Below, one piece after another: positions 6,441 through 9,064 of a stretch of 30,092 bases of DNA; the stretch's first letter is position 1, and each line of letters begins with the position of its first letter. Made by a program: the position numbers and the translations under genes. The notes beneath the pieces are model-generated. The model had not been told where the DNA came from and did no database searches. It saw only the letters and a list, made by a program, of their open reading frames with translations. The stretch covers positions 1 to 30,092 of IMG/VR virus record IMGVR_UViG_3300001715_000016; one strand, given 5' to 3'. The DNA comes from a virus.

Positions 6441-6609
6441 CCAAGCACCAGCAGAGATTGCCAAGGCTATTTTTGCGATGCAAAGCAGGGCAGAACAGGA
6501 GAAAGCATTAAGCAATTGCCAGAACGTTAAACAGGTGCGGCATTGCCTTAATGTATTTATCGAAAGACGGCGAATTTGCCGGTTATTGGGGAAGGAGTTT
6601 TGGTTGTGA
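6433..6609 (+). CDS. Small basic protein with TTG start, 58 aa
   Basis: A frame starting at TTG 6433 has a GGAG ribosome binding site at about 6420-6423 and ends in a TGA that overlaps the GTG start of rusA (GTGA). It fills what would otherwise be a 165-base gap in a gapless operon. The product is Arg/Lys-rich in its second half (NVFIERRRICRLLGKEFW) and helical by eye. No family is recognised. The unusual start codon makes the exact N-terminus uncertain; an internal ATG at about 6478 is an alternative. Confidence 0.45.
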   Translation: MHDQAPAEIAKAIFAMQSRAEQEKALSNCQNVKQVRHCLNVFIERRRICRLLGKEFWL

Positions 6610-8448: not shown

Positions 8449-8457
8449 TGGTATAGT
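8449..8457 (+). promoter_or_regulatory. Possible extended -10 late promoter
   Basis: TGGTATAGT (8449-8457) is an extended -10 element (TGn plus TATAGT) with no good -35. It lies just past the Q-like gene, where a late promoter (pR') is expected. A start near 8464 would put the GAGCG-AA-CGCTC inverted repeat (8469-8480) at the head of the transcript. This is suggestive only. Confidence 0.35.
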
Positions 8458-8503
8458 TCAGGTAAGGTGAGCGAACGCTCGTCTGAATCAGAAAGAGGTT
8501 ATT

Positions 8504-8638
8504 ATGCCTTTAGATAAAAAACACAAAGAGGCTCAAAAGAAGTTTAACAAGCAAATGTCTGACTTGGTTGCAAAAGCTAATTTCGTTGTGCGTAAAAACC
8601 AACTAAGGCGCCTTGGTTCATTTACTGGCGACATCTAA
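8504..8638 (+). CDS. Tiny basic protein, 44 aa
   Basis: ATG 8504 has a clear AGAAAGAGG ribosome binding site. The product is highly Lys/Arg-rich (MPLDKKHKEAQKKFNKQMSD...) and probably an amphipathic helix, hence possibly nucleic-acid binding. No homologue is recognised. Its stop is followed directly by the next ATG. Confidence 0.5.
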   Translation: MPLDKKHKEAQKKFNKQMSDLVAKANFVVRKNQLRRLGSFTGDI

Positions 8639-8830
8639 ATGAAATCAGAAATCCAATGGCGTCAAGAGCAAACTAGAAAGCGACTCATCGCATTGATAGA
8701 TGAGTGCAGACGCCCAAGCTGGCTAAACCTATATGGCTTACTCCCTCCCGCTGCGCAATCAGCAATTAATGCGGCGGAAGCACAATTAAAAGCAATGGAT
8801 GAAGCCAGCCCATATTTCAGTACCAATTGA
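8639..8830 (+). CDS. Small hypothetical protein, 63 aa
   Basis: The ATG at 8639 begins on the base after the previous stop. The product is helical by eye (MKSEIQWRQEQTRKRLIALI, then AAQSAINAAEAQLKAMDEAS) with a proline-containing hinge. There is no strong ribosome binding site, so it may be coupled to the 44-residue gene. It is the least certain CDS before the late region. Confidence 0.4.
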   Translation: MKSEIQWRQEQTRKRLIALIDECRRPSWLNLYGLLPPAAQSAINAAEAQLKAMDEASPYFSTN

Positions 8831-8844
8831 GAAGACAGGATAAT

Positions 8845-9064
8845 CCAGTCGTTTCTTTGGCGAGACAGTTGGTACTGTGATGTATTCGCATGGTGATTAT
8901 GAATAACCCGGGAAGCCGGGCGAGCTAGTATGTTGGCTGTGGTCATCGCGTTGACCCGGATATGCAGACTTAGTTACCAGCCGAATACAGTTCCATGCAC
9001 AAGGTTGATGGGTCTTATCAACTGAAAACCAAACCCCAATACAGAAATGTGTTGGGGTTTTTTA
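8845..9064 (+). ncRNA. Candidate structured RNA between the early and late regions
   Basis: The 267 bases from 8831 to 9097 have no convincing ORF but hold a dense series of pairings: ACAGT/ACTGT (8865-8869 with 8874-8878), CCCGG/CCGGG with a GAAG loop (8907-8911 with 8916-8920), GGTCA/TGACC (8941-8945 with 8952-8956) inside GGCTG/CAGCC (8935-8939 with 8978-8982), and GTTGAT/ATCAAC (9004-9009 with 9017-9022). A long-range TGTATTCG/CGAATACA pairing (8881-8888 with 8982-8989) could close a multibranch junction. A strong terminator ends the region. It could be a lambda-6S-like leader at which Q acts, or a separate small RNA; the 5' end is unknown (a weak GATAAT box is at 8839-8844). Confidence 0.5.
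9031..9064 (+). terminator. Strong terminator before the holin gene
   Basis: A 13-bp stem (AAACCCCAAtACA with TGTgTTGGGGTTT, one G-T pair) closes a GAAA tetraloop and runs into a T tract ending at 9064. It lies 33 bases before the pinholin start. It would stop early readthrough and make late expression depend on antitermination, like lambda tR'. Confidence 0.9.

What the first reader, a model, noticed from the sequence alone, without database searches (positions are those of the whole stretch)
8845..9064. Candidate structured RNA with multibranch fold between the Q-like gene and the holin
About 220 non-coding bases contain at least five local helices, a long-range 8-bp pairing (8881-8888 with 8982-8989) and a 13-bp GAAA-capped terminator. 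A further pairing of CATGG (8889-8893) with CCATG (8993-8997) would form a pseudoknot. This is more structure than a simple leader needs; it may be a new phage small RNA or an unusual Q-dependent leader.
Basis: partly seen in the sequence, partly recalled or inferred. Interest (0 to 1): 0.6.

Follow-up and report, generated by a model that had tools for sequence, protein, structure and literature searches.

The report
Phage three-way-junction structured RNA module
The stretch between a phage regulatory gene and its lysis genes holds a real, previously uncatalogued folded RNA whose conserved three-armed core recurs, with compensating base changes, in other phages and prophages, in one of them next to a tRNA-like end; what it does is not known.

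Summary
It is 95-97% identical in three other phage sequences (L002, L003=L004=L016, L006). Distant relatives were found by covariance model and by DNA pattern: L027=L071, and L039, which has two tandem units. Across seven units P1 exists in three unrelated sequences, yet 90 of 91 base-pair cells pair. Nothing in Rfam matches. The following ~140 nt (8879-9026) differ in every phage; in four of five cases they begin with a helix that closes the domain, and in L027 that domain ends in a tRNA-like acceptor plus T-arm. The terminator is real and conserved. The pseudoknot is unsupported. The module occurs in two operon contexts: the late-lysis leader (window group) and the early, integrase-side operon (L027, L039). 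L005 keeps the same promoter block, terminator and holin without it. A Q-specific leader is therefore unlikely. Best reading: a portable, probably trans-acting structured phage RNA, here ended by the late terminator. Function inferred, not shown.

The parts
8449..8495 (+). promoter/leader-start block of the late operon (extended -10-like TGGTATAGT, then a palindrome-like GAGCG..CGCTC)
   Evidence: 95.7% identical over 47 bp to L005, where it lies about 60 nt upstream of the same terminator; promoter activity is inference, not returned by the consensus scan
8504..8638 (+). 44-aa ORF with an AGAGG ribosome site, no relatives found
   Evidence: sequence; no Pfam or PHROG match
8639..8830 (+). 63-aa ORF whose last codons and stop lie in the P1 5' strand of the RNA
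   Evidence: ORF list; no relatives
8817..8878 (+). conserved three-way-junction RNA core; P1 = 8817-8829 with 8866-8878 (12 of 13 pair here)
   Evidence: 95-97% identical in L002, L003, L006; P1 covaries across three unrelated stem sequences, 90 of 91 cells paired; z -3.2
8834..8850 (+). P2 hairpin: GAC 8834-8836 with GTC 8848-8850, extended by GGA/TCC
   Evidence: folds; P2 stem rewritten but kept in L027 (GAUGACC/GGUCAUC) and L039 (GAUGG/CCAUC)
8854..8865 (+). P3 hairpin: UCUU 8854-8857 with GAGA 8862-8865, loop UGGC
   Evidence: register supported by C-G/U-A and C-G/U-G exchanges in L027 and L039
8881..8989 (+). variable domain, closed by 8881-8888/8982-8989 and 8891-8898/8972-8979
   Evidence: closing helix right after P1 in 4 of 5 sequences, combined p about 0.001; interior not conserved
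9003..9023 (+). local hairpin GGUUGAUG..UAUCAACU
   Evidence: MFE and centroid; not conserved in relatives
9031..9063 (+). intrinsic terminator between the RNA and the lysis genes (tR'-like position)
   Evidence: 13-bp stem, GAAA loop, T run; conserved in L002, L003, L005 and in altered form in L006
9098..9394 (+). holin, first gene after the terminator
   Evidence: PF04971 P21 holin S family, E 4e-9; PHROG 20 holin

Best explanation
The region encodes a portable structured phage RNA: a conserved three-way-junction arm (P1-P3) followed, after a few nucleotides, by a second domain closed by its own helix, which in some relatives resembles the acceptor/T-arm end of a tRNA. It is carried as a cassette in phage operons. 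In this phage it is made as the 3' end of the late leader, which stops at the terminator before the holin unless RNA polymerase is made termination-resistant. It is probably trimmed out and acts in trans as a stable RNA. Shown by sequence: the fold, its covariation, its presence in different operons, the terminator. Inferred: transcription, processing, trans action.
For: Fold z -5.7. The core is kept at 95-97% between phages whose flanks diverge. Covariation: 7 pairs changed on both sides, 0/500 shuffles reach the number of changed cells or the score; with L039 unit 2, three unrelated P1 sequences and 90/91 cells paired. L039 was found by a pattern that did not use the P1 5' strand, yet pairs 13/13 (p about 1.5e-4). 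Conserved U-G pairs on the + strand (P1 position 11, P3) would be A-C on the other strand. Two operon contexts: late leader (window, L002, L003, L006) and early integrase-side operon (L027, L039). Tandem units in L039 sharing TGCGGTG...CACCGCA. L005 does without it. Closing helix in 4 of 5.
Against: No expression data. Only three P1 lineages are known, so covariation rests on few independent changes. The second domain of the window has no T-arm and is not conserved. L003 shows no closing helix (p 0.80, z about 0). tRNA likeness is strong only in L027, and neither ARAGORN nor the Rfam tRNA model sees it. No partner protein is known.
Confidence: 0.5

Rival explanations
1. A cis-acting antitermination element, like HK022 put: the 3WJ binds the transcribing polymerase and lets it pass the terminator before the lysis genes and other terminators downstream.
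For: It sits in polycistronic operons, early and late, and directly before an intrinsic terminator; put RNAs are about 70 nt, similar in size (PMC9378689).
Against: L005 has the same terminator and holin without it. put consists of two stem-loops, not a 3WJ. Tandem copies with tRNA-like ends (L039) and about 140 nt of further structured RNA before the terminator are not expected. The element lies hundreds of nt from the presumed start.
Confidence: 0.2
2. A constitutive terminated late-leader small RNA like StxS or lambda 6S RNA: the variable part base-pairs with host or phage mRNAs, and the 3WJ is a stabilising 5' cap.
For: Position between late promoter and tR'-like terminator, where StxS arises (PMC7873438); the variable part differs in each phage; strong terminator.
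Against: In L027 and L039 the same core is in an early operon with no terminator of this kind directly behind it. The second domain tends to be a closed, folded unit rather than an open seed. Hfq dependence and targets untested.
Confidence: 0.17
3. A DNA element (recombination or replication hairpin) whose inverted repeat is the functional part; no RNA function.
For: The 62-bp core begins and ends where similarity between the phages begins and ends, as at a module boundary.
Against: P3 and P2 change in a paired way too; conserved U-G pairs favour the + strand; the + strand folds better; no recombinase gene is next to it in the late operon.
Confidence: 0.06

Closest known systems
Bacterial Y RNA (YrlA) bound by Rsr/Ro60
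   Same: Modular: one stem module plus a tRNA-like module with acceptor/D/T arms (as reviewed in PMC8394870); reported also from phages (PMC12282133).
   Different: In YrlA the RNA's own 5' and 3' ends form the stem; here the 3WJ arm and the closed domain are consecutive. No TROVE/Ro protein in G001, G047 or the phage records searched; no Rfam match.
GOLLD and ROOL ornate phage RNAs
   Same: Structured phage/prophage RNAs of unknown function, often near tRNA islands (PMC12286853).
   Different: About 60-250 nt instead of several hundred; no covariance-model match.
Late-leader small RNAs of lambdoid phages (lambda 6S RNA, StxS)
   Same: Position between late promoter and terminator ahead of the lysis genes (PMC7873438).
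   Different: Not known to carry this 3WJ; here the core also occurs in early operons.
HK022 put RNA
   Same: About 70-nt structured RNA in a phage operon ahead of terminators (PMC9378689).
   Different: put is two stem-loops binding RNA polymerase; here a three-way junction, absent in L005 although terminator and holin are the same.

Membership tests
Bacterial Y RNA (YrlA) | partner Ro/Rsr (TROVE) protein encoded in the same genome | tested here: not met
   PF05731 absent from G001, G047 and four phage records (drafts or fragments); it rings in the control Deinobacterium
Bacterial Y RNA (YrlA) | tRNA-like module with acceptor and T-arm | tested here: inconclusive
   clear by eye and fold in L027, partial in L002, L006 and L039 unit 1, absent in the window; ARAGORN and Rfam tRNA negative
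Bacterial Y RNA (YrlA) | covariance-model match | tested here: not met
   no Rfam match to a Y RNA family
GOLLD / ROOL | covariance-model match and length of several hundred nt | tested here: not met
   element about 247 nt
Q-dependent late leader (lambda 6S-like) | lies between late promoter and terminator upstream of lysis genes | tested here: inconclusive
   terminator and holin shown; promoter block shared with L005 but its activity is inferred
Q-dependent late leader (lambda 6S-like) | upstream gene is a Q antiterminator | tested here: inconclusive
   no Pfam match, weak PHROG match of unknown function
HK022 put RNA | two consecutive stem-loops | tested here: not met
   fold is a 3WJ; comparison with PMC9378689
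HK022 put RNA | antitermination activity in cis | not testable with these tools
   needs a read-through reporter
Known Rfam families | score above gathering threshold | tested here: not met
   0 matches in 4227 families; only chance-level matches to the terminator

The most novel reading that the evidence does not exclude
A new family of mobile phage RNAs, built from a three-way-junction arm and a tRNA-mimicking domain, matured by host tRNA enzymes and acting in trans during infection or lysogeny, for instance as decoys or counter-defence RNAs. In L027 and L039 it sits right after a gene that in L031 weakly matches the restriction-alleviation protein Lar.
Probability: 0.3. Interest if true: 0.75.

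Novelty: new variant of a known kind. Interest (0 to 1): 0.55.

Why it matters
Structured phage RNAs outside tRNAs are few and mostly of unknown function. This one has comparative support, a small portable core, a defined position before a terminator, and a relative whose second domain ends like a tRNA, so processing by tRNA enzymes and action in trans can be tested directly. It also shows that an RNA core can sit in early and late phage operons alike while the domain joined to it is exchanged.

Tried and rejected
Rfam at gathering and at lax thresholds: only terminator-like chance matches. BLAST of the region in phages, plasmids and E. coli: none. Relatives of the 63-aa ORF and of the Q-position gene in viral contigs: none. 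One viral pattern scan was mis-specified (10 instead of 8 free bases), so its empty result means nothing; repeated correctly. Loci L036-L038 and most of L039-L086 were chance pattern hits. L028 (22 bits) lacks P1 pairing and was rejected. Model and DNA searches of a sample of 369 genomes of the class gave no further members; the filters were strict, so absence is not shown. Y RNA was considered and not adopted because no Ro protein and no model match was found. A link to tRNA-like sequence in Kuttervirus Vi01 rests on 31 nt at E 0.3 plus a shared TGCGGTG/CACCGCA; the 3WJ model does not match there, so it is not counted as a member.

Full report
What was claimed and what is there. The finding lies in a virus record of 30092 bases, between a gene in the Q position and a P21-type holin. 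The 8-bp long-range helix and the 13-bp terminator are exactly as described, and the region folds better than shuffled sequence (z -3.9). But the stated start, 8845, cuts through the best-supported part. With the true start at 8817 the whole element to 9063 reaches z -5.7. Taken apart, the signal comes from a three-way junction (3WJ, z -3.2) and from the hairpin-terminator end (z -4.0); the middle is not significant by itself with loose ends (z -1.3) and about -2.6 with its own exact ends.

Close relatives. Holin relatives in viral contigs and a pattern scan gave the loci used here. Against L002, L003 (identical in this region to L004 and to a Methylophaga MAG, L016) and L006, a block of 67 bp (8818-8884) is 95-97% identical. 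The roughly 140 bases after it are different in each, and the terminator returns conserved. L005 has the window's promoter-like block and the same terminator, but between them only a short leader with a perfect 14-bp hairpin. So the segment between promoter and terminator is a replaceable cassette, and the RNA is dispensable for this terminator-lysis arrangement.

Fold of the core. P1 is 13 positions (8817-8829 with 8866-8878), P2 a GAC/GUC hairpin, P3 UCUU/GAGA around UGGC. The four close sequences are too alike to test it. A covariance model of them found L027 in another genome of the same order, with P1 rewritten by compensating changes while the loop UGGCGAG, CAGU and UAAUG stay. Because a structure model found it, this alone is biased. 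A plain DNA pattern that fixed only the 3' side of P1 next to the junction, the P3 loop and 3' strand, and TRATG then found the same element in L071 and a further one in L039. There the unconstrained 5' strand of P1 pairs 13 of 13, expected by chance with p about 1.5e-4; no other new locus was better than 11. L039 carries a second unit about 260 nt downstream with a third, unrelated P1. Over the seven units 90 of 91 cells pair and ten of 13 positions use two or more pair types. Conserved U-G pairs say the + strand is the folded one.

Second domain. In L002, L006, L027 and the window a helix begins within four bases of the end of P1 and closes the domain (p 0.011, 0.041, 0.026, 0.038; L003 p 0.80; combined 0.001). 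In L027 the closed domain is UGCGGUG ... GUCGG-UUCGAAU-CCGGC-CACCGCA: a 7-bp acceptor-like helix with an adjoining T-arm that has the standard T-loop. L039 has the same UGCGGUG/CACCGCA helix in both units. L002 and L006 have AAUGUGGU and a hairpin next to the 3' strand. ARAGORN and the Rfam tRNA model do not call any of these, so 'tRNA-like' is a reading of anatomy. The window itself has no T-arm; its closing helix is followed by a second helix.

Context and mechanism. In the window group the RNA precedes a terminator and the lysis genes. In L027 and L039 it is in an early-type operon on the integrase side (in L031 between repressor and integrase), after a small gene that in L031 weakly matches Lar. 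A cis element of the lysis genes or of Q would not be expected in both places, and would not be expected in tandem. The simplest account is a portable RNA that acts in trans, here ending at the late terminator and therefore probably made constitutively from the late promoter in the lysogen, as is known for StxS. Transcription, processing and function are inferred.

Known kinds. No Rfam family matches. The modular logic recalls bacterial Y RNAs, but the Ro partner was not found in the genomes that carry the RNA. GOLLD and ROOL are larger and do not match. put differs in fold, and this RNA is missing from L005. I therefore call it a new variant of a known kind, phage structured RNAs of unknown function. 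Limits: few lineages, no expression data, one capped collection scan lost to a mis-typed pattern.

Noticed in passing
L005 4785-4850: The leader of L005 between promoter and terminator is a perfect 14-bp inverted repeat AGAAAGCAGTCTGG/CCAGACTGCTTTCT (z -6.7 with terminator), apparently an alternative occupant of the same cassette site.
   Followed up: partly
L088 3332-7443 (Salmonella phage Vi01, NC_015296, 134831-138942): A 4.1-kb stretch without annotated genes holds five tRNAs found by ARAGORN (Met, Asn, Gln, Tyr, Ser) and several long hairpins, among them a unit TTGCGGTG...GTCGGTTCGAATCCGACCACCGCAA that resembles the tRNA-like end in L027.
   Followed up: partly
L088 3964-4148: Sub-threshold match to permuted tmRNA (21 bits, gathering 47) over a possible tag reading frame GCAAACGATAATACGTTCCTGGCAGTAGCTTAA (ANDNTFLAVA-stop): possibly a phage tmRNA.
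   Followed up: no
L031 9644-9949 and L039 7647-7964: The gene just upstream of the RNA in the early operon weakly matches the restriction-alleviation protein Lar in L031 (E 2e-4, below cut-off); the L039 gene looks like its relative; a DNA methyltransferase lies nearby in L039.
   Followed up: partly
window 6500-6609: 110 bp are 99% identical to the start of L006 although the neighbouring shared stretches are about 75-95% alike: a recent exchange or a shared junction.
   Followed up: no
window 8817-8830: The stop codon of the 63-aa ORF lies at the base of P1, so a ribosome finishing this ORF would open the 5' strand of P1; this arrangement is seen only in the window.
   Followed up: no
L039 7520-7620 (minus strand): About 120 nt upstream of the 3WJ are also shared by L027 and L039 (about 74% over 190 nt), with a covarying hairpin GCACGC/GCGTGC to GCAGAC/GTCTGC; the RNA of that lineage may be longer.
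   Followed up: partly
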